Assembly (NCBI GenBank): GCA_013215775.1
Contig: JABSQO010000003.1
Span: 86,784 to 150,783, forward strand
DNA from: Piscirickettsiaceae bacterium
Lineage (GTDB): Bacteria; Pseudomonadota; Gammaproteobacteria; Nitrosococcales; Methylophagaceae
Length of the DNA stretch: 64,000 nucleotides
Direction of reading: 5' to 3'
The notes beneath the pieces were generated by a model. It did not search any database. It was not told the origin of the DNA and saw only the letters and a program-made list of their open reading frames with translations. The stretch's first letter is position 1. Each line of letters starts with the position of its first letter. Shown here one piece after another: positions 2,058 through 39,595 of the stretch. The position numbers and the translations under genes were made by a program.

Positions 2058-2104
2058 AGTATCCTATCAAATCAGTGACTTAAAGTAAAGTCACCGGTGA
2101 CTTA
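2058..2104 (-). promoter_or_regulatory. Palindromic operator/promoter ahead of the lysis cassette
   Basis: The site AAAGTCACCGGTGACTTA (2087-2104) is a perfect palindrome over its central 16 bp. Its outer bases form the TAA stop of the ThiE-family gene. A second half-site, GTGACTTA, lies next to it at 2075-2082, and a -10-like GATACT occurs on the minus strand at 2058-2063. It is one of about 18 copies in the window. Confidence 0.6.
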
Positions 2105-2713
2105 TTTAGTCGCGCAAAGCAATCCAGAAATCGTTCTTGCTATGTTGTCCGATCTATAGATGTCACCTATTACAGCAACGCCGTCAGCACCCGCATCCAT
2201 CACACTGCTAACATTGCTCGTTGTGATCCCACCAATGGCCACCAACGGCTTGTCGGTCATCGCTCGCAATCGTTTGATCTCGTCAAGACCCCACAGATTG
2301 TCTGCATCCGCTTTTGTCACTGTTTTAAATATTGGCCCAATACCAAAGTAATCAATGTCTTCACCGACAGCCGAACTATATTGATCTGGGCGGTCTAGCG
2401 TTAAGCCAATTGCGACCCTTCTTGGCAACATCTTGCGAGCAATGTTAAAAGGCACATCTCTTTGACCTATGTGAAGCGCGTCAGCGTCAATTGCCAGAGC
2501 TACGTCCAGTCTATTATTTACTATCATGGACACGTCGTTGTCTGCCGTTAGCTTTCTAATCTTCTCTGCCGTGCTGTATAGCGTTAAATCTGTGCAATTG
2601 CCCCAGCTAAACTGAATGGCCTTACAACCCGCCTCTATTGATTCCGCCACCACCTCGTACAACCTATGCGTCTCGTCTCGTGAGTAGTTCGTTATAAGTT
2701 GTAGGCGAATCAC
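2102..2713 (-). CDS. ThiE-family protein (thiamine-phosphate synthase-like), active site altered
   Basis: The 203-residue protein is a TIM-barrel protein of the ThiE/TenI family. ThiE joins HMP-pyrophosphate and thiazole phosphate to make thiamine phosphate. Family motifs seen are VNNRLDVALA, HIGQRD, GPIFKTVTKADA, VAIGGI and GADGVAVIG. Two sites differ. The usual QLR-K pyrophosphate-binding segment reads IQFSWG, and the usual Asn-Asp metal pair reads Asn-Asn. The Asp of GQxD and the TK of the loop remain. There is no His typical of the TenI tautomerase. The start is a GTG with a weak ribosome site, 2 bp after the upstream stop, so translation may be coupled. A metabolic gene between fibre and lysis genes is unusual. 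Activity is uncertain. Confidence 0.85.
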   Translation of the reverse strand: MIRLQLITNYSRDETHRLYEVVAESIEAGCKAIQFSWGNCTDLTLYSTAEKIRKLTADNDVSMIVNNRLDVALAIDADALHIGQRDVPFNIARKMLPRRVAIGLTLDRPDQYSSAVGEDIDYFGIGPIFKTVTKADADNLWGLDEIKRLRAMTDKPLVAIGGITTSNVSSVMDAGADGVAVIGDIYRSDNIARTISGLLCATK

Positions 2714-14360: not shown

Positions 14361-17300
14361 CGAACTGCACCTCTCATGCTGTCTCTAAACGGGCCAGGGC
14401 TCGACGCCGCAGCCATTACCACATCTAATATCATCTTCTTGCCGTCGAACTTCATTTGGCCTTGGTTTGCCGTTACTTCTTGCGTTGTTTGATTGATGAC
14501 ATTCACCTGGACATTTGGCGCCTGAGTACCGCCTGCCATTGTTACGGGAATGGATTTACCATCGGGTAGCGGTACAAATGCTTCCGCCATGCTGCCCTCG
14601 CCAAACAAGGCCAATTGTGGTGAGTTTGCCACGCCACCATTAGCGTACGCTTTACCCATACTCGACATCACGCCGCCATTCTTAAATGGCCACAGATTAC
14701 TCAAGAAGTCACCTATGCCACTCATAGATCCTCCGGCTCTACCTGCCGCGCCGGATGTTGTGTGAATTGAACCACCGCCTGTTGGCATAACTGTGCCGCC
14801 GCCGAGACTGCCAAGTAAGCCACCCGCAAGGTCTCCCAAGAAGCCGCCGCCACCGCCGCCACCCAACGCTTGCGTCAGGGCTGATTGTATTTGTATCTTA
14901 ATTATGTCTTGCAAGATTGATTCTGCGAGGTCTGCGAAGTCCAATTTGCCCGTTCTTACGAATGTAGCTAATCTGTCGCTGGCGTCGTCTAACCATCTAG
15001 CAGACGCTTCTTGCATCTTCTCAGTAGAGTCTTCCCAGTCACGTAACATTTTATCCATTGGCGTTTCTGTATTGCGAACATATTCTTCCTGCAGGGAGGC
15101 TAAGTTCTCCTTCAGGGCCTTATCTATTTCTAAGATCTCCTGCGCTGTCATTGCTTCTGTTTTAACAATAGACGCCTTCGCCTCTTTGACCTTCTGCTTG
15201 TACTCAGCCAAGTAACGACCCTTGTCTCTCAAAAGGGAGTTGTTAATCTTCCGCGTGTCTTCAATCAAATCACTCGCATTTGAGAATGTTTCCTTACCAA
15301 TTGCGTCTAACTTGGCAACTTCGGCCAACCTTTTCAACTCTTCCGTAGCGTTAGGAACATTCTTCAGTAACTCGTCAATCTCACGATTTATTCGATCAAC
15401 AAAGGTGTCATCTTTTTCAGTTAGGAACTCTTTCTTAGCTGTGGCAGCCTCCTGAGTCATGCGGGCTGATTTTTTGGTAATGGCGTCGATTGCAGACAGC
15501 TCATCGCGTCGAGCCTTTTTAACTCTGTTCAGCTCGTCAACAACCTTTGCGTAACCCTCATACAGCTCTTTGACTTCTGCCAAAGTTTGACCACCCACTC
15601 GCAACCCTGCAAGCAAGTCCTTGCCTTCATCACCAAACACGCCACTTTTTAACAAGCTCTCGAACTTAGCAACCTCGCCACCCAAACCTTCTATTTCAGC
15701 AGATGCCTCTATAGTTTTGGCCTTTAAGCTGGCAATTAAGTTTTCAAGACGTGAGCCCGCGCCGGAGCCAGGCTTGTCGAGCAGCTTAGCCGACTCGCCT
15801 GCTATTTTTATCTGAGCAACTTTCAACTCCGTCAGTCTGATTATCTCTTCTTGAAGGTCTTTTATTTGCGATTTGAGACCTGTGGTTTTTTGCAAACCAC
15901 CGCCCTTCGCAAGCTCAGCTCTAATCAAAGCCATCTTTTCTCGGGTGTTTTTAAGAAGACTGTCGTAACTATCAGCAATAGCTTCCTGTCTTCTGCTGAT
16001 GAACTCTTCTCTTTCTATGTCGCCATCGTTATACGCCTTTGAGATTATCTCCATTCTGTCCGAGTAGGCTGCTCTGACGTCCTTGTTCATTCTCGCCATT
16101 TCTCGCTTCAGGTCTTCTGACATTCTTGACGCATTGTTGTCCGCCATCAACTTCAGGCCATCTTCCAAACGCTTTTGCATGTTCAGGCGGTCTGTTATCG
16201 ACTTGCCCAGCATATCTCTTTGTTCGTCGATTTCTTTTTGATATTTGGCACGTCTAGCGTCGCCAAACGAGTTAGATAGGCTACCGTCTCTGTGACCCTC
16301 TGCCTTCGCTATCTTCGCCAAAATAGCTTGCTCATTTGCTTCTCTTTGAGCGATTGAATTTCTCAAAATAGATTGCGTGTTTTCATCTACAACTTTGGTG
16401 CCGGTTCTCATTATTTCCGACGCTTCGTCTTGGTTGCCGGCAAATGCGTATATGGCTGCTGCCGCACCCGCTATAATTGCCGCGCCCCACGCCCAGGGAC
16501 CCATTACCGCAAGCAGTGAAATCTTCAGCACTCTTAAGCTGTTCGAGAATAATAACGCCGCACCACTTCCTAAAGACATGGAGGTGGTTAAACCACCCGT
16601 TAGACCCGCCGTTACCGCCGACACTGTTCCGACCGCTGTGAGCGCCGCTGTGAGCGCGAGATATGTCTTTTGGATCTTCATCACGATAGAGGCAACAATC
16701 GTGGCCGTTTTCCAAACCACAACAAACTTGCCCACCGCCATCGTAACGTCCACAATTTGGCCGCCGTGTTTTATCAGGAATTCAGCCGCTGTGGTTAACC
16801 CTCTTATTACTGTCGCCAGCGCTTCACCCCAGGCTTGAGCAAATCTCTCTACCTTGTTTGGATCTAGCCCGTCGATTACCTTGCCCAAGGCGACTTTGGC
16901 CTCTTCAAACATCTTACTGTTGCCGATGGCCACCTGAAACTTAGTCCATCTCGTTTCTAATCGAGACACCATGCCCGACCATGTATCCATCATTAGTAGA
17001 CCAGCGCCACCCATCGTTCTGTCCATCTCACGCAACATACGCTGTAGAGCATCGTGCGCCTCCACCCGCCCAGACGAGATCGCCTTAACAAGTTCTTGGA
17101 ACGACATGTTCATTGAGCGAGCCATTAATTTGATTGCTGTGGGGACTGCCTCACCCAACTGCTGACGTAGCTCCTCCATCGAGATGACGCCTTTACCCGC
17201 CATCTGTTGAATCGCTATTGTTGCTCTATGAAGAATCTCATCCGTGCCACCAAACTGCGCTACGGAGTCTGTCAGGGACACGATAGCGCCCTTTACGTTG

Positions 17301-28277: not shown

Positions 28278-28529
28278 CTACGGCTTCATAAGCGCCATGC
28301 CGCTTACAGTAGGTGCGATTACCTGTCTACTGCGGCCGCGTCGCACTTCAGTGCCCTTCTTTTCAATCAAACCCTTCTTAATCAGCGACCGCGTGGAGAA
28401 GTGCAGCGATTGCTTGGTGGTCTCGTACGGTAGCGCCATCACTAGCTGATCCGTGTCTAAAAACGAACCATCTGGATTCGCTCGGACAATTGCGCTCATC
28501 AACTGGCCCTGTTTTGTTGTTAATGCCAT
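28278..28529 (-). CDS. Small winged-helix protein
   Basis: The 83-residue protein has a helix-turn-helix followed by a basic wing (GLIEKKGTEVRRGRSRQVIAP), as in MarR-like or DprA-tail winged helices. It is the last gene of the ParB/ABC/GNAT operon and overlaps the GNAT-like gene by 10 bp. A DNA-binding regulator of the operon or of the adjoining late genes is possible. Confidence 0.7.
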   Translation of the reverse strand: MALTTKQGQLMSAIVRANPDGSFLDTDQLVMALPYETTKQSLHFSTRSLIKKGLIEKKGTEVRRGRSRQVIAPTVSGMALMKP

Positions 28530-29395
28530 TCTGTGTTCCTCAACTTCTCTTCTGCCGGTTGCTCATCAAAAGCCAAGAGTGGAATACTCTCCGGTAATTT
28601 CGTATCTACATCTGGGTTTTGATATACGCCGTACATCGGACTTCCAAACACTAACTGCTGTATGTTTTTGATTAGAGTGGGTATCTCCATCAAGTCTACT
28701 TTTGACGTACCGGTGTTTAGATTGCTTCCGGTCTTTTCAAGCGCCGAATGTCGGTAGTAAAACTCTCTAATTTCTTGAATAACTCTCGCCTTGTGCCCAG
28801 GAGACATCGCCTCCAATTCCTTTAGCACTCCGTCGTGGTCTGCGGGATGACAGTCAAAAAGCCTCTTCATAAACTTCAGCCCCTTCTCGTATGCGGCCGC
28901 CTGCTTTGGCTTGACGAATTTGAAACCAGCTCGAATTGCAAATGGATTAAACTTGCTCATTGAAGATTGGATCTCCATGAACTGCTTGCCCTCCATTCTG
29001 GCAATTAGATTTAACATTCGGTACGAAACCCCACCGGCTCTGAATAATGTGTCTACCACTATTCTCGAACACAGAACGAATTTCTTATTAACAAACTTGG
29101 CTCGATATGTGTTGGTTGACTTCGTGTCTCTTCCTGGCTTCAGCCTCGGAAACAGAACATGTCTTCCGGCCAAAAGTAATCGCGGCGATGATATGACGGC
29201 GACGGCAACTAGCTGACTGCCCAACATACATCTCCAGACCCGCCCAACAACCCTTCCTTCTGATTTGTAGTGCAGCTCGTGAAGCTCATTCCAGTCGTCC
29301 TTAGTCCCTCGCTCTACTCTCATGTGTTTTAGCAGAGAAAGTTCCCCATACGCGCTCTCAGAGCGTTCAATGAGTGCGTATTCGTTCTCAATCAT
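28520..29395 (-). CDS. GNAT-like acetyltransferase-fold protein of the ABC ATPase operon
   Basis: The 291-residue protein has a GNAT-type core in its first 170 residues (LVAVAVISSPRLLLAG, then a strand-helix FVLCSRIVVDTLFRAGGVSYRML). Proteins of the COG2401 type fuse an ABC ATPase to such a domain; here the two are separate genes of one operon with two small membrane proteins between them. Substrate and activity are not known. The C-terminus (about 190-291) is unassigned. The ATG overlaps the preceding stop codon. Confidence 0.7.
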   Translation of the reverse strand: MIENEYALIERSESAYGELSLLKHMRVERGTKDDWNELHELHYKSEGRVVGRVWRCMLGSQLVAVAVISSPRLLLAGRHVLFPRLKPGRDTKSTNTYRAKFVNKKFVLCSRIVVDTLFRAGGVSYRMLNLIARMEGKQFMEIQSSMSKFNPFAIRAGFKFVKPKQAAAYEKGLKFMKRLFDCHPADHDGVLKELEAMSPGHKARVIQEIREFYYRHSALEKTGSNLNTGTSKVDLMEIPTLIKNIQQLVFGSPMYGVYQNPDVDTKLPESIPLLAFDEQPAEEKLRNTEWH

Positions 29396-29732: not shown

Positions 29733-29869
29733 TCGTCATCGTCCTCGTCGTAAAACTCTTGCGAGCCGTAAATCGCAACAAGAACCAAAACAACGATGCC
29801 GATAACAGCCACCGCACCGACAATGGATAGCACTAACACTAGCCAGCTCAACATCTCTGCCTCAATCAT
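29720..29869 (-). CDS. Small single-span membrane protein
   Basis: The 49-residue protein has one long hydrophobic segment and an acidic tail (DEDDDEWGL). I chose the ATG at 29869 because it overlaps the ABC ATPase stop as ATGATTGA; a longer frame upstream lies inside that gene. Confidence 0.65.
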   Translation of the reverse strand: MIEAEMLSWLVLVLSIVGAVAVIGIVVLVLVAIYGSQEFYDEDDDEWGL

Positions 29870-30494
29870 GTTCCACCTCAATCTTGTCTCTAAAATACTT
29901 TTCAACGTAAAGGTTTGGACCCAACTCTTCTTTCAAGTCCATGTGCGTTGTCGCAACCATGACGGTCTTGCCCAGTTTTCTTGCCACCTTCTGCAAGTTG
30001 AAGGCAACAACTTTTGCCGTCACTCGATCTAGCGCTGCTGTAAACTCATCGGCTACCCAAACATCCGCCTCTGATTCAATAACTTTCGCCAGTCTGAACC
30101 GATACTTCTGCCCGTCGGACAACTCTGAAGGCTTGCGAACAAACAAGTAGGCATCGTTCAGCCCCGCCAGGCTAAGTAAGCGAAGTGCGTCTGACATATT
30201 CTTGCCAAGCTGGTCGATAAGAGGTCTGTCGTCGTATTCAATACTGTCGATGTCGGCTACGGAATTGCCATCTTCAAGCATCAATTTCGCAAGGTCTCTC
30301 ATAAGCAATGATTTCCCCGAGCCAGATTGACCGGTTATGTAACAAATGTCGCCATCATTGATTTCAATCTTGAAGTTGTCGTAAATAACAAACTCCTTGT
30401 CGGACAAACCCAGTCCAAACGCCTCCGACACCTCCAGAACTCTTGGCGTGCGCTCCACCGATGATTTGAACTTCTTACTTATTGTGTATTGCAT
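29862..30494 (-). CDS. ABC-type ATPase, COG2401-like, stand-alone
   Basis: The 210-residue protein is a full ABC nucleotide-binding domain: Walker A GQSGSGKS at 55-62, signature LSDGQ at 125-129, Walker B VWVADE at 145-150 and switch His184 in TTHMD. There are no membrane segments in it. It is unlike transport ATPases and closest in kind to ATPases fused to acetyltransferase domains. The gene directly follows a ParB-like gene with no gap. DNA or protein remodelling is more likely than transport, but this is inference. Confidence 0.85.
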   Translation of the reverse strand: MQYTISKKFKSSVERTPRVLEVSEAFGLGLSDKEFVIYDNFKIEINDGDICYITGQSGSGKSLLMRDLAKLMLEDGNSVADIDSIEYDDRPLIDQLGKNMSDALRLLSLAGLNDAYLFVRKPSELSDGQKYRFRLAKVIESEADVWVADEFTAALDRVTAKVVAFNLQKVARKLGKTVMVATTHMDLKEELGPNLYVEKYFRDKIEVEHD

Positions 30495-31172
30495 TTAATC
30501 CCCGACGAGATTGGTCATGAACGAATTAAAAGCGACGTGACCCTTCTCTCCGGTCTCATCTTCTAATCTGCCCATGAACTTGCCGATCATTCTTGCCATG
30601 TCTACGGTGACTCGCTTGAAGCCAAACGCCTCGCCCAAAGGTACTTCGCCAGCTTCAATTTCTTTGGCTTTGGCTTCTGCTTTCTCGGTGTGTTCTTTGA
30701 CTTCGGTATCGAGGTCGTCGATCACAGAACTTAAATCCATCTCAGCTAGGTCGGCGGTAAGAAAGTCAAGTTCGTTATCTTCGTAGCCCATGCCGGTCAT
30801 ATCAAAGTCCGCATCGACAACTAGGCTTTCCAGCTCTTGTTGCTCCAGCTCATAGTCGAAATTCACTCCGACAGACTTGTTATCAACTAATCTGGCCGCT
30901 TTTATCTGATCGTCTGTCAAGTCATCTAACACAATCGTTGGAACGTACGTCATACCCAAGCTAATCGCTGCCAGACGACGCCCATGACCCGCCACGATGA
31001 CATTGTTCTTATCTACCCAAATGGATGAGTTAAAACCGAAGCGACGAATACTCTCAACAATCACGGCCACGTCTTTGTCAGTGTGAATCTTTGCGTTGTT
31101 TTCGTAAGGCACCAGATCTTCAACTTTGAATTGAATCACGGGTCTGCCCTTGATTAAACTATCCTCGCTCAT
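30495..31172 (-). CDS. ParB-like protein 2
   Basis: The 225-residue protein has a ParB/Srx N-terminal domain: DLVPYENNAKIHTDKDVAVI, then VIVAGHGRRLAAISLGM, with the GHGR version of the ParB CTP/ATP-binding motif. The C-terminal half is acidic and helical, without a clear ParB helix-turn-helix. In phages such domains often sit beside methyltransferases; none is seen here. It overlaps the small Cys-rich gene by 14 bp. Confidence 0.82.
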   Translation of the reverse strand: MSEDSLIKGRPVIQFKVEDLVPYENNAKIHTDKDVAVIVESIRRFGFNSSIWVDKNNVIVAGHGRRLAAISLGMTYVPTIVLDDLTDDQIKAARLVDNKSVGVNFDYELEQQELESLVVDADFDMTGMGYEDNELDFLTADLAEMDLSSVIDDLDTEVKEHTEKAEAKAKEIEAGEVPLGEAFGFKRVTVDMARMIGKFMGRLEDETGEKGHVAFNSFMTNLVGD

Positions 31173-31310: not shown

Positions 31311-31991
31311 TTAGCCTCCATTTTCACTCTCCATCATTTCTCGATATTTAGTTGCGACCCACACGAGAGCGTCTCCGGCATTTGTCAGAGAGTCCGCTTG
31401 GTCTAGTTTTTGTGTCTTCATTACAAAGCTCATTAGCTCGGTAACATCATCTGCGTCTTCCATTGCTACCTTGAAACGCATTATTTGGTGTGTCTGTGTT
31501 GGCGCAGCCGCTAAGTCCCCTAGTGCGGGTAGTTCGTCATCTTCACCCAAATCTAAGTCGTCCAAATCTATACTCTTAGCTGAAAAGATAGATTCAAACT
31601 CCGCGTCGGAGAAAGGAGTAAAAGTGGATAGAACTTCAGCACCGCCTAAATCTTCCAACAACTCGGCTAACTTCAGCGTGTCGTCAGAACCATATCGACC
31701 GTTGTCGATCAGGCTGATTTCTTTTGCTCTCGTGTCGTCTATGACACCGAGATTAAGTACGGGAATTGATTCTGAAAGTTTATTGACGGCTATCTCTGCT
31801 CGATGCTCACCTCCAAGAATTTGGAGTGTGCCATCAGGCAATGTTCTTACGATTACTGGCTTGAACATACCCAGTCTGTCGATTGATCCTTCTAGCTTTT
31901 GTTCGTTCTCTGGACTCACTATATTGGTGTTCCAAGGATTCGGTTTCAATAGCGTCGGATCTAGTTGTTCTAATTTCATATTTTTCTTCAA
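31311..31991 (-). CDS. ParB-like protein 1
   Basis: The 226-residue protein has a ParB N-terminal domain (LLKPNPWNTN, IDRLGMFKPVIVR and LQILGGEHRAEIAVNKL with the GEHR motif). The C-terminal half is acidic, then helical, with no recognised DNA-binding motif. It is the first gene of the eight-gene operon, downstream of the divergent palindromic site. It is related to, but clearly different from, ParB-like 2. Confidence 0.82.
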   Translation of the reverse strand: MKKNMKLEQLDPTLLKPNPWNTNIVSPENEQKLEGSIDRLGMFKPVIVRTLPDGTLQILGGEHRAEIAVNKLSESIPVLNLGVIDDTRAKEISLIDNGRYGSDDTLKLAELLEDLGGAEVLSTFTPFSDAEFESIFSAKSIDLDDLDLGEDDELPALGDLAAAPTQTHQIMRFKVAMEDADDVTELMSFVMKTQKLDQADSLTNAGDALVWVATKYREMMESENGG

Positions 31992-32054: not shown

Positions 32055-33761
32055 ATGTCTGTAATTCAAATCGCACACAACGCGGTCAAAGCTAAGTTAA
32101 TTGACGTACCAAGAGAGGTGAAGTTGAAAGTGTCTGAGCTCCTTTCTTATCGAGTGGAAGGTGCCGAACACGTGGCCACGACTAAATCTGTCGGGTGGAA
32201 TGGGCGGTCTTCGTTTTTTCACTTTAAGCAAGGGACATTTCCCGCTGGATTTGTTCATCGGATACATGATGGCCTGACGAGAGCTGGCTACACTGTGAAG
32301 ATCGTTAGAAAGGCTCTACCATTGCCTTTGGGCGACAAAAACCCGAAGGTGGATGACTTCCCAGAAGATCCCAGATACGATTATCAGGCGCTTACCGTCA
32401 AGAGATTGCTAAAGCATGGTCAGATAATCGCGCAGGTGGCGACAGGTGGCGGGAAGTCCAGAATTGCCAAGCTGGTTTACGCCACGATTAAGCGAGAAAC
32501 TTTGTTTCTAACAACCCGCTCCGTCTTAATGCACCAAATGAAAGATGCGTTTGAAAAAGACATGAAAATAAAAGTTGGCGTTATTGGCGAAGGTGAGTGG
32601 AACGCGACAAAGGGAATGAATGTTGCGATGGTTCAGACGATTGCCCCCTACGTTGACAAGAAGACGGTCGAAGGCGAGATTGAGCGATTTTTGATTGCCC
32701 AGTTCAACGCCGAAAAGAAAGCCATCGATGCCTTAAAGCTCAAGCTGAAAAAAGATAAGGCGACGCTTCGTGAAATAAACACCGAGATTGCTAGGTTGAG
32801 ACGAGCTTTGATCGCCAAGAGACCGTCTGACTCCAGACTAGCCACTGCCACCAAAGCGAAGGTTGCAAAGCACAATGCAAAACACTTGCAGGTTCTAAAG
32901 TTCTTGGAGCGATTTGAGGTTGTTATTCTTGAGGAGGCACATGAAGCCGGTGGCAATGGGTTCTTTGAGATTCTAAAGCGCTGTGTCAATGCTCATTACC
33001 GACTATCGCTTACAGCAACGCCGTTTATGAGAGACGACGAAGAAGCGAACATGCGGTTGATGGCCACCTCTGGTCCAATCGGCATTAAGATTTCAGAAGA
33101 CATGTTGATCAAGCGCGGAATTCTAGCGAAACCAATCTTTAAAATTGTCGATATGGGAGATCCAATTAAGAAACTTCACCCGAATTACAACAAAGTTCGT
33201 CGGACAACCCCCTGGCAGCGTGCCTACAAGCTCGGTATTGCCGAAAATGAGGTTAGAAACGAGATTATTGTTGAAGAGTGTGCACGATCTAAGCGCAATG
33301 GTCTGACCGCAATGGTGCTTGTTCACCACACGGCTCACGGTCATATTCTGAAAAAGATGATGTTGGCTGAAGGTATCAAGGCCGACTTTATCTATGGCAA
33401 GCACGAGCAGTCACAGCGTAAAAGAGCCCTGGCTCGGCTATCAAGTGGCGAGATTGACGTATTGATTGGCTCTACCATTCTCGATGTGGGCGTTGACGTC
33501 CCTGCCGTTGGTCTGGTGATACTTGCGGGCGGCGGTAAAGCGGAAGTCGCCCTGCGTCAAAGAATTGGACGTGGTTTGCGCTGTAAGAAAAGTGGGCCAA
33601 ACATTTGTTTAGTTGTTGACTTTTCTGACCTTCGCAACTCTCACCTAAAGGGTCACGCAATGCAACGTAGAGCGATTATCGAGGATACGCCTGGCTTCGC
33701 CGAAAACATTCTTCCAAAGGGTGTCGATTTCGACTACGAAGAGCTAGGGTTAGCGGCATAG
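32055..33761 (+). CDS. SF2 DNA/RNA helicase with coiled-coil insert
   Basis: The 568-residue protein has an N-terminal domain of about 105 residues, then helicase motifs: Q-like RYDYQALTVK, Walker A ATGGGKS at 129-135, motif II EEAH (near 310), motif III SLTATP, and in the second domain DVGVDVP and QRIGRGLR. A charged coiled-coil insert lies at about 215-275. It resembles UvsW/RAD25-type helicases used in phage recombination and fork repair. The ATG has a good AGAGGA ribosome site. It opens the only plus-strand block. Confidence 0.9.
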   Translation: MSVIQIAHNAVKAKLIDVPREVKLKVSELLSYRVEGAEHVATTKSVGWNGRSSFFHFKQGTFPAGFVHRIHDGLTRAGYTVKIVRKALPLPLGDKNPKVDDFPEDPRYDYQALTVKRLLKHGQIIAQVATGGGKSRIAKLVYATIKRETLFLTTRSVLMHQMKDAFEKDMKIKVGVIGEGEWNATKGMNVAMVQTIAPYVDKKTVEGEIERFLIAQFNAEKKAIDALKLKLKKDKATLREINTEIARLRRALIAKRPSDSRLATATKAKVAKHNAKHLQVLKFLERFEVVILEEAHEAGGNGFFEILKRCVNAHYRLSLTATPFMRDDEEANMRLMATSGPIGIKISEDMLIKRGILAKPIFKIVDMGDPIKKLHPNYNKVRRTTPWQRAYKLGIAENEVRNEIIVEECARSKRNGLTAMVLVHHTAHGHILKKMMLAEGIKADFIYGKHEQSQRKRALARLSSGEIDVLIGSTILDVGVDVPAVGLVILAGGGKAEVALRQRIGRGLRCKKSGPNICLVVDFSDLRNSHLKGHAMQRRAIIEDTPGFAENILPKGVDFDYEELGLAA

Positions 33762-37737: not shown

Positions 37738-37847
37738 AAAGCACTTTATAGTGGAAAATATTGGCTCCTATACCTAGGTGCTTTTTGAGAATTTCTAGGA
37801 CTTTGTTATTTTCTATCTAACTTGCTACTTACTCACTCATAAACAAG

Positions 37848-37877
37848 TTAGAGCGTGACACAATTATCACGCTCTAA
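37848..37877. terminator. Two-way terminator-like hairpin
   Basis: TTAGAGCGTGA and TCACGCTCTAA form a perfect 11-pair stem with an 8-nt loop. It lies 9 bp after the end of the gene at 37886-38494. Both sides have T-rich tails, though not long U-runs. Confidence 0.6.
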
Positions 37878-37885
37878 TCGTTTGC

Positions 37886-38494
37886 TTATTTCTTCGCGCT
37901 TGCTTTGCACATTTTCAATAGTTGCTTGCTTTCGTCGCTGTCTTTTAATGATAGCATTTTGTTTTCTTTGTCGTACTCTGTAATGTTCATTATGTGAGTT
38001 GCAAACGCTGTGCTTGATGTCTGCGTGTCTGCTGTATTGATAGCGTAATGATTGCGTATGTCTGTCGCTTTCATACTGTCATTCTCGATACAGATAGCAC
38101 TTGAAGATTGACGTTGCTTTGTTGACATTGCTTTGCTATGTCGCGTCATGTTGAGCAAGTGCGCTACAACGTGAGACGTAAACGTCTTAGACTTGCACAA
38201 AACGTCAGTCTTTAGACTGTTGATAATTTCAGTACACTTTATAAGAGCGTATGCGTTGCTGTACGCTGTCGTTTTGTTGTACTGCTTGATCTTACTAGTA
38301 CATGATAAAACAACGTCTGTAGAGCTTAGCGCTACGCTAAAATTAAGTATATGTCTCGACACTGCTTCGCTAGTAGCGTCAAGCTCGATACGTTCTGATA
38401 ATTCGCGTTGAATTTTCGCGTTGCTTGCAATGTTAGATAATTTTACGTTAGATAATGATTTTATGTTTTGAATGTGCTTAGTAGAATGTGTCAT
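37886..38494 (-). CDS. Protein without Gly, Pro or Trp, inside the GG/CC-free island
   Basis: The 202-residue frame starts at 38494 with AAGAGAG eight bases upstream, a usable ribosome site that also lacks GG. The product is rich in Ser, Thr, Lys, Asn and Ala and has not one Gly, Pro or Trp, because GGN, CCN and TGG codons are excluded by the DNA rule. Helices are likely; no family, signal or membrane segment is seen. Whether the protein has a function or merely fills the island is open. Confidence 0.6.
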   Translation of the reverse strand: MTHSTKHIQNIKSLSNVKLSNIASNAKIQRELSERIELDATSEAVSRHILNFSVALSSTDVVLSCTSKIKQYNKTTAYSNAYALIKCTEIINSLKTDVLCKSKTFTSHVVAHLLNMTRHSKAMSTKQRQSSSAICIENDSMKATDIRNHYAINTADTQTSSTAFATHIMNITEYDKENKMLSLKDSDESKQLLKMCKASAKK

Positions 38495-38812
38495 TATATG
38501 CTCTCTTTATAGTTAGTTAGTTTAGTAGTACGTTGCAGTGAGTGACTTGTTATTGCTTAGTCTTGATACTGACTTAATAAGCGTATCGTGCTAAGTCGTT
38601 AACGCTGTTTCGCTGTAACGTGTAAACATAATAGCACGCTGAACAATACACGCAAGCACTAAATGCAAAATAAATGTAAATAAAGTGTAAGTGACTGATT
38701 GATATAGAGATAAAAGCTAAAATAAATGTTGCAATTGTAAGAAGTAGCATAAAAAGCGTGTAAATGCGACGTTTTAAGCGTGTATATAAAGAGTGTATTC
38801 CGTCAGCGTGTA
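38495..38812. other. Noncoding right part of the island
   Basis: I see no credible gene here. The left half is T-rich and the right half is A-rich on the plus strand. It contains weak GTGACTT-like half-sites (near 38540 and 38690) and many GCGT/ACGC words. A promoter for the minus-strand gene at 38494 may lie in it but no clear -35/-10 pair stands out. Confidence 0.4.
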
Positions 38813-38880
38813 GATGAGGAACATTCTCAAATGAGGACGATTGCTAAATGAGGAGCGTTCTCATTTAAGAACGATTTCAC
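38813..38880. repeat. Four 17-bp tandem repeats (iteron-like)
   Basis: Four consecutive 17-bp units share the pattern AATGAGGANCNTTCTCA: units start at 38813, 38830, 38847 and 38864, the last one being degraded. They begin 12 bp after the island ends. Tandem units of this size are typical of protein-binding iterons at replication origins or operators. Confidence 0.6.
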
Positions 38881-39400: not shown

Positions 39401-39547
39401 AGCGGTCGGAGGGTTGACACTACCGAGCGGTAACAATCGACGCCCAATGACGCTTTCCTTGGTGTTTCGGCGTGTACGGGAATGGCCTGCAATCACCTTG
39501 GCCTGCGTTAGCCTGAAATTGCCAAGGAACGGTGGACTGTCACCCAT
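39401..39547. other. Noncoding gap with three CCWWGG hexamers
   Basis: Between a terminator and a promoter element this 147-bp gap holds no gene. It has two CCTTGG and one CCAAGG and a GAAATTGCCAAGG segment that resembles one at 40570-40590. Confidence 0.35.
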
Positions 39548-39575
39548 AAAAAAGCCCCAATTAAGGGGCTTTTTT
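39548..39575. terminator. Two-way terminator
   Basis: AAAAAAGCCCC and GGGGCTTTTTT are inverted copies around AATTAA. The stem with A- and U-runs on both sides is a standard factor-independent terminator in either direction. It follows the end of the gene at 39596-40195. Confidence 0.85.
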
Positions 39576-39595
39576 GATTGCCTGGTGTCGGTGGA

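What the first reader, a model, noticed from the sequence alone, without database searches (positions are those of the whole stretch)
37800..38799. A 1000-bp island without a single GG or CC dinucleotide
I checked each base: between the GG at 37798-37799 and the CC at 38800-38801 neither strand has GG, since CC is its complement. With normal base use about 60-100 would be expected. The rule crosses a gene, a terminator-like stem and noncoding DNA, so it is a constraint on DNA. Known facts that could matter: type I-F CRISPR systems, common in gammaproteobacteria, use a CC/GG PAM, and Cas9 uses NGG, so nothing in the island could be targeted by either. A mutator acting at CC, as some cytosine deaminases do, could also erase it. 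Other options are avoidance of a modifying or cutting enzyme, or a need for a certain DNA form at an origin. Iterons begin 13 bp after its end.
Basis: partly seen in the sequence, partly recalled or inferred. Interest (0 to 1): 0.95.

Follow-up and report, generated by a model that had tools for sequence, protein, structure and literature searches.

The report
Phage DNA zone purged of GG

Summary
Confirmed and extended. Window 37800-38799 has no GG/CC (69-91 expected); the next longest run in the 150,783-base contig is 138. The window is a prophage of the SSU5/nickie/RHEph10 type. Relatives from Rhizobium, Pseudomonas, enterobacteria and metagenomes carry deserts at the same place. In most they start at a conserved site, TCTARGACTTYG (window 37795), and run about 0.7-2.1 kb to the right, whichever way the genes point. 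Of 53 distinct sites, 40 have less than half the GG/CC density on the right. In 8 overlapping pairs of relatives 1,133 substitutions include 26 that make or break GG/CC (531 expected); the helicase shows 385 (358 expected). So the rule is selected, acts on both DNA strands and follows a drifting word-recognising factor. CRISPR, mutator and primase explanations fit badly. My best candidate is the neighbouring ABC-ATPase/ParB cluster with its GNAT-like partner, a published type of predicted base modifier, with the island as its exempt zone; that is inference. Against it: ANB28 and BUCTxx99 have the cluster but only a short desert, and L066 keeps a GGB desert without the GNAT-like gene.

The parts
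37800..38799 (.). GG/CC-free island (exempt zone)
   Evidence: 0 GG/CC in 1000 bases; deserts at the same place in relatives
37795..37803 (+). Conserved anchor site CTARGACTT at the left edge; the desert extends to its right
   Evidence: at this place in 16 of 20 loci scanned, in the orientation of the helicase; 53 distinct sites in the larger panel. Some desert loci (SSU5, L066, L139, L146) have no exact match
37886..38494 (-). Gene X, 202 aa, no Gly, Pro or Trp; unknown function
   Evidence: joined at E < 1e-3 to a family that ends at 34 of 86 ORFs beside the site; alignment A2; composition
38495..38799 (-). Region upstream of gene X inside the island; in ANB28 and BUCTxx99 only a short desert lies beyond the gene at this place
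37848..37877 (-). Perfect 11-nt inverted repeat, terminator-like, after gene X
38814..38864 (+). Iteron-like 17-nt repeats just outside the right edge
   Evidence: the middle copy (38831-38847) read by eye
28520..29395 (-). GNAT-like protein, phrog_886; candidate partner of a word-specific base modifier (prediction)
   Evidence: depositors label homologues 'ABC-type ATPase fused to a predicted acyltransferase domain' or alike; alignment A3; profile support weak
29862..30494 (-). ABC ATPase
   Evidence: Pfam ABC_tran 3e-12
30495..31172 (-). ParB-like protein 1
   Evidence: phrog_930, 1e-69
31311..31991 (-). ParB-like protein 2
   Evidence: Pfam ParB_N 1e-7, phrog_723
32055..33761 (+). UvsW-like helicase used to find and orient relatives

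Best explanation
This is a zone of about one kilobase, anchored at a conserved site, from which the phage lineage keeps out every copy of a short GG-containing word, likely because that word is the target of a phage-encoded DNA-modifying system and the zone would have to stay unmodified to work. Shown: the zone, its anchor site in most relatives, its place beside the helicase cluster, its independence of gene direction, its lineage-specific words, and the selection that holds it. Inferred: that the recognising factor is the ABC-ATPase/ParB cluster with its GNAT-like partner 6-9 kb away, that it modifies DNA at the word, and that the zone, which holds gene X and its upstream region, must be free of the modification so that gene X can be expressed or replication started on otherwise modified DNA.
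For: The desert starts at the site and spans the gene at this place in either orientation and second ORFs (L098 129 aa; L129 194 aa; others read by eye), so it is a DNA rule. 1,133 island substitutions in 8 overlapping pairs (islands trimmed to their strict part) include 26 GG/CC-changing ones against 531 expected; helicase 385 against 358. Words are lineage-specific: L089 has 0 of GGA, GGC, GGG, TCC, GCC, CCC in 900 bases but 32 GGT and 11 ACC; L009 tolerates GGA; L131 CGGT and some CGGA; SSU5 has 0 of AGGC, CGGC, AGGT, CGGT; L141 avoids GGC and GGT. A drifting recognition specificity would leave this. The GNAT-like gene was found in 68 of 74 loci and in 30 of 50,697 phage records, the same 30 that top the helicase list. 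A GNAT coupled with an ABC ATPase is predicted to acylate a DNA base (PMC7824862, passages read). Word distance tracks GNAT distance best in two of three tests: r 0.569, partial over gene X 0.376, p 0.001, n 31; r 0.493, n 43 after a post hoc exclusion.
Against: L066 keeps a GGB desert (longest free run 472, mean spacing 12.6) but has no GNAT-like gene where it should lie, nor elsewhere in its 80-kb fragment; two ParB-like genes and a P-loop ATPase remain. ANB28 and BUCTxx99 carry the GNAT-like gene but have only a short desert. With all 47 distinct loci, terL (0.527), portal (0.523) and ABC (0.492) track the word better than GNAT (0.472), so shared ancestry may explain the correlation. Acetyltransf_10 hits 1 of 21 members at 0.005 and no solved structure matches. 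No modification has been measured. Promoter-like sites upstream of gene X do not exceed shuffles as a set. Tenacibaculum phage pT24 shows no comparable word desert in 50 of 235 kb.
Confidence: 0.28

Rival explanations
1. Protein-free zone: the phage's ParB-like and ABC ATPase proteins bind or load at the word and coat or partition the genome; the island is kept free of the word so that it stays open, without any base modification.
For: ParB1, ParB2 and ABC homologues were found in all 34 loci searched, L066 included; L066 keeps a desert without the GNAT-like gene. ParB1 keeps a partial signal over gene X (0.208, p 0.004).
Against: Over GNAT the ParB signals vanish (0.051, 0.037). Binding of these proteins to such short words is unknown.
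Confidence: 0.14
2. Self-exemption of gene X: its product is a small DNA-binding protein that recognises the GG word over the phage genome, and its own locus is kept free of the word so that it is not bound or silenced.
For: A gene of similar size lies in the island of the lineages examined. The word tracks it after controlling for helicase (partial 0.272, p 0.001) and ParB2 (0.302). The C-terminal motif looks by eye like a winged helix; the N1_10 protein has one weak PHROG hit, 'HTH DNA binding protein', E 0.0047.
Against: After controlling for GNAT the signal vanishes (-0.005, p 0.51). Only 22 of 35 of these proteins match one profile, so those of RHEph10, nickie, L009, L066 and SSU5 are linked by place and by eye only. 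The desert reaches beyond the gene to the site.
Confidence: 0.14
3. Primase-silent origin: the word is the priming site of the phage DnaG-like primase, and the island is an origin zone where no primer may start.
For: 34 of 36 records searched encode a homologous zinc-finger primase. Iteron-like repeats lie nearby.
Against: L119 and L106 have 99.2% identical primases but different words: AGGT 1/8 against 13/8, CGGT 3/6 against 15/10. T7 has no desert of its GTC priming word (recalled) at its primary origin. GC skew follows gene strand.
Confidence: 0.1
4. Avoidance of a host defence: a nuclease or CRISPR PAM with GG specificity drives loss of the word from an especially exposed stretch.
For: By my count the island lies about 6-14 kb from the inferred cos end, on the side that would enter first if packaging runs as in lambda (from; inference). 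Csy4 occurs in 3 of 29 genomes searched.
Against: No Cas1 or Csy4 match in the host. Hosts are diverse. The rest of the genome keeps normal GG/CC. Words vary by phage lineage.
Confidence: 0.07
5. A local mutator, such as a cytosine deaminase acting at CC, erases the word.
For: GC content is about 10 points lower in the islands.
Against: In three pairs C:G to T:A changes are 44-52% of island substitutions against 49-58% in the helicase. GC and CG steps are raised. Silent codon changes outnumber replacements in gene X (40/14, 39/8, 48/30).
Confidence: 0.03

Closest known systems
Restriction-site avoidance in phage genomes (recalled)
   Same: A short word is selected against because a DNA-acting enzyme recognises it.
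   Different: As recalled, known avoidance is genome-wide and partial; here it is confined to about 1-2 kb at one place, absolute in the strict lineages, and the word changes with the phage lineage.
Phage Mu Mom, and the GNAT plus ABC ATPase modifier predicted in PMC7824862
   Same: A GNAT-like protein next to an ABC ATPase, the predicted kind of base modifier.
   Different: No target word or exempt zone is described in the passages read; the protein here is untested and its GNAT fold weakly supported.
SSU5/nickie/RHEph10 phages and phage-plasmids
   Same: Same gene order: portal, terL, GNAT-like, ABC, ParB, ParB, helicase, then the island.
   Different: No feature marks the site or the desert in the records read; in RHEph10 a minus-strand gene is called over the frame of gene X.
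PAM avoidance (type I-F CC/GG, Cas9 NGG; PAMs recalled)
   Same: The strict version of the word equals these PAMs.
   Different: No Cas1 or Csy4 in the host, and other lineages avoid GGV, GGB, GGY or MGGY instead.

Membership tests
SSU5/nickie/RHEph10 phage group | Syntenic block portal-terL-GNAT-ABC-ParB-ParB-helicase | tested here: met
SSU5/nickie/RHEph10 phage group | Site TCTARGACTTYG after the helicase cluster | tested here: met
Classical restriction-site avoidance | Word depleted through the genome | tested here: not met
   GG/CC at ordinary density outside the island
CRISPR PAM avoidance | Host carries a system with that PAM | tested here: not met
   no Cas1, no Csy4 match in G000; other signature genes not searched
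Mom/GNAT DNA modification system | GNAT fold in the candidate enzyme | tested here: inconclusive
   weak Pfam hit in 1 of 21, no PDB hit; motif seen by eye in A3
Mom/GNAT DNA modification system | ABC ATPase partner next door | tested here: met
Mom/GNAT DNA modification system | GNAT-like gene present wherever the desert is | tested here: not met
   L066 lacks it but keeps a GGB desert; its record is an 80-kb fragment
Mom/GNAT DNA modification system | Modified bases at the word in virion DNA | not testable with these tools
   needs long-read or mass-spectrometry data
Primase-silent origin | Word follows primase sequence | tested here: not met
   L119 against L106
Deaminase hypermutation | Excess of C:G to T:A changes | tested here: not met
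   three pairs

The most novel reading that the evidence does not exclude
A phage superfamily keeps a kilobase-scale 'clean zone', anchored at a conserved 12-base site, that is free on both strands of the target word of the phage's own DNA-modifying machinery; the word has been rewritten repeatedly in evolution and the zone, including the protein it encodes (which in strict lineages gives up glycine, proline and tryptophan), was rewritten each time to match.
Probability: 0.3. Interest if true: 0.93.

Novelty: categorically new. Interest (0 to 1): 0.86.

Why it matters
In strict lineages the rule forces a protein to do without three amino acids and holds while many other bases change. Because its word varies between lineages, the deserts act as natural footprints that spell out the specificity of an unknown DNA-acting factor in dozens of phages, so that factor can now be sought directly. 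If it is a base modifier, the zone tells which piece of phage DNA must stay unmodified, which is testable by sequencing virion DNA.

Tried and rejected
Host CRISPR: no Cas1 or Csy4 match in the host. Mutator: no transition excess. Primase: rejected as word-setter by L119/L106; T7 control negative; the primase zinc-finger alignment gave no clear link. cos at the site: SSU5 and Cyrano records both end next to the terminase gene, so the site is probably not the DNA end. Replication origin by GC skew: skew follows gene strand. Rfam: four matches, all below their gathering scores. Promoter upstream of gene X: 28 genes tested, not above shuffles as a set. DNA similarity of the island in phages and plasmids: only short pieces, best E 0.03 and 4. 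Gene X by single-sequence search: no relative and only itself; by profile 21 proteins, the window's own included, none with a functional name. Tenacibaculum phage pT24, named in PMC7824862 for a GNAT/ABC pair: no comparable word desert in its first 50 kb; the rest was not fetched. Gene X and the GNAT-like protein against solved structures: no credible match.

Rows dropped and choices: one search removed near-duplicates (GNAT-like over 97% alike), 59 to 47, then, after the n 47 result was seen, four rule-poor loci (L011, L045, L056, L132). In the distance tests and 105 loci without the compared proteins were left out; one search also left out L045, L141 and L132 by name, L045, L055 and L132. 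In those tests the 'gene X' of 13 of 35 loci is assigned by place only. One search skipped L055 for proteins. One search failed on a wrong coordinate (L070) and was rerun.

Full report
Observation. Window 37800-38799 has no GG or CC; 69 are expected from its own base composition and 91 from the window rate. The next longest GG/CC-free run is 83 in the window and 138 in the 150,783-base contig. The window is the end of contig C23 of a 2.2-Mb bacterial assembly; host genes up to lepA lie on the left of the contig and phage genes follow to the contig end (gene names partly read by eye). I did not identify the host organism.

Relatives. The helicase at 32055-33761 leads to the SSU5/nickie/RHEph10 group of phages and phage-plasmids. 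Their gene order is alike: portal, terL, GNAT-like, ABC ATPase, ParB-like genes, helicase. Beyond the helicase cluster several carry a desert, in GC-rich genomes: V1VFA-S 0 GG/CC in 1,279 bases (178 expected), nickie 3 in 1,275 (153), hairong 4 in 1,428 (157), Nican01 3 in 1,224 (155), RHEph10 7 in 1,222 (169), N1_10 5 in 1,236 (168), Y2_11 5 in 1,233 (167), B1VFA 5 in 941 (133), X66 7 in 926 (133). These segments were chosen as the most depleted of each locus.

Anchor site. CTARGACTT, in the wider form TCTARGACTTYG, sits at the left edge in the orientation of the helicase: at this place in 16 of 20 loci first scanned (L010 has a match elsewhere, L012, L046 and L047 none). In strict phages GG/CC density falls from roughly 10-25 per 100 bases left of the site to 0-3 in the first 100 bases right of it. 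Of 64 sites in the larger panel with at least 400 bases on both sides, 53 are distinct and 40 of these have less than half the density on the right. With longer flanks required, 53 distinct sites remain, and in 47 the longest GG/CC-free run of the locus lies within 2.3 kb to the right. At least one match (L145) is probably chance. Some desert loci (SSU5, L066, L139, L146) have no exact site. In the window the site itself holds the boundary GG.

A rule on DNA. The desert covers noncoding DNA, the gene at this place in either orientation, and second ORFs. Gene X is a family of 34 of 86 ORFs tested beside the site, the window protein among them; the genes at this place in RHEph10, nickie, L009, L066, SSU5 and ANB28 are not joined to it by profile and are linked by place and by eye. 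In loci without a strict rule the gene uses Gly and Pro (10 and 1 in SSU5, 18 and 9 in ANB28), so the ban does not come from the protein. Under a pure GG/CC ban no other step falls below 0.55 of expectation in 17 islands; the lowest, TA and AC, are also low in the background.

Selection. In 8 pairs of relatives (some share a member; islands trimmed to their strict part) the island changes faster than the helicase, yet 26 of 1,133 substitutions make or break GG/CC against 531 expected; in the helicase 385 against 358. In three pairs the substitution spectrum has no excess of C:G to T:A.

Lineage-specific words. Many deserts that first looked weaker are deserts of a different word. In L089 GGA, GGC, GGG and their complements are absent from 900 bases while GGT/ACC occurs 43 times. 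L009, L146 and L066 tolerate GGA; L126, L129 and L131 CGGT (and some CGGA); L098 and L106 AGGT and CGGT. SSU5 has none of AGGC, CGGC, AGGT, CGGT (8-10 expected each) but 11 of 11 TGGT; its GGG (4/23) and TGGC (6/15) are low too. L141 avoids GGC (8/50) and GGT (3/26) but keeps GGG (90/34) (all). L139 tolerates CGG and some GGG. CGGC and AGGC are avoided in most. Several loci are intermediate (L092, L109, L115, L132, L148). Summed over 47 loci the residue is symmetric between strands (479 GG, 495 CC), though single loci can be skewed in a tolerated word (L089 32 to 11). ANB28, BUCTxx99, L011 and L112 have no rule over the first 0.9 kb, but their longest GG/CC-free run (125-194 bases) lies 0.9-1.1 kb right of the site.

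Which factor? A word that drifts by lineage, in phages of very different hosts, points to a factor encoded by the phage. The primase is unlikely to set the word: L119 and L106 have 99.2% identical primases, different words, 29% identical gene X and 65% identical helicases. In distance tests the GNAT-like protein predicted the word best among nine proteins (r 0.569, n 31). With 47 loci terL, portal and ABC did better; without four rule-poor loci, an exclusion made afterwards, GNAT was best again and no other protein added significant signal. Against it, L066 keeps a GGB desert without a GNAT-like gene, while two ParB-like genes and a P-loop ATPase remain. This is suggestive only. A GNAT coupled with an ABC ATPase is a published prediction of a base-acylating DNA modifier (PMC7824862, passages read). 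Profile support for the GNAT fold is weak; it rests on depositors' labels and on motifs seen by eye.

Reading. I commit to an exempt zone: the phage keeps the target word of its own modifying system out of the stretch that holds gene X and its upstream region, so that this stretch stays unmodified. Why that is needed (early expression of gene X on modified DNA, or start of replication) is inference. Confidence 0.28, lowered from 0.37 after L066. That some phage-encoded word-recognising factor is behind the rule I hold at about 0.65.

Known kinds. Genome-wide restriction-site avoidance is known (recalled); I found no report of a site-anchored, lineage-specific local ban (searches; listings only). 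Other papers: passages of PMC8537276 and PMC12839542. The library lacks most subscription papers and two older papers of interest, so this is not proof of absence.

Noticed in passing
L009 record (G044:C1:76562-78601): The primase matches in two pieces about 1 kb apart inside one open frame of 750 aa, as if an intein or other insertion sits in the primase.
   Followed up: no
window 39540-39579: A 40-base stretch is 95% identical to KVP40-like Vibrio phages; by eye it is a hairpin followed by T, perhaps a shared intrinsic terminator.
   Followed up: no
L048 15258-15938: RHEph10 gp148 is annotated on the minus strand over a GG-poor plus-strand frame (15282-15848) that matches the genes annotated in its relatives.
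   Followed up: yes
window 2102-2713: An ORF among the phage structural genes reads by eye like thiamine-phosphate synthase (ThiE), a possible auxiliary metabolic gene.
   Followed up: no
L171 5755-6120 (phage T7): T7 has a 365-base run without CAG/CTG, the recalled E. coli DnaG priming word, over its phi1.1 promoters (primary origin, recalled).
   Followed up: no
L045 29227-29466 and L056 22628-22762: Short GG/CC deserts in ANB28 and BUCTxx99 coincide with many copies of GCTGAAC/GTTCAGC repeats, also present beside the site.
   Followed up: partly
left flank of the site, about -40 to -15: Many metagenomic relatives share a stretch like GAGGAAGG followed by GGGCC left of the site; function unknown.
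   Followed up: no
L066 4914-9922: L066 has terminase-like genes, a 359-aa P-loop ATPase and two ParB-like genes but no GNAT-like gene between them, unlike its relatives (names by eye).
   Followed up: partly
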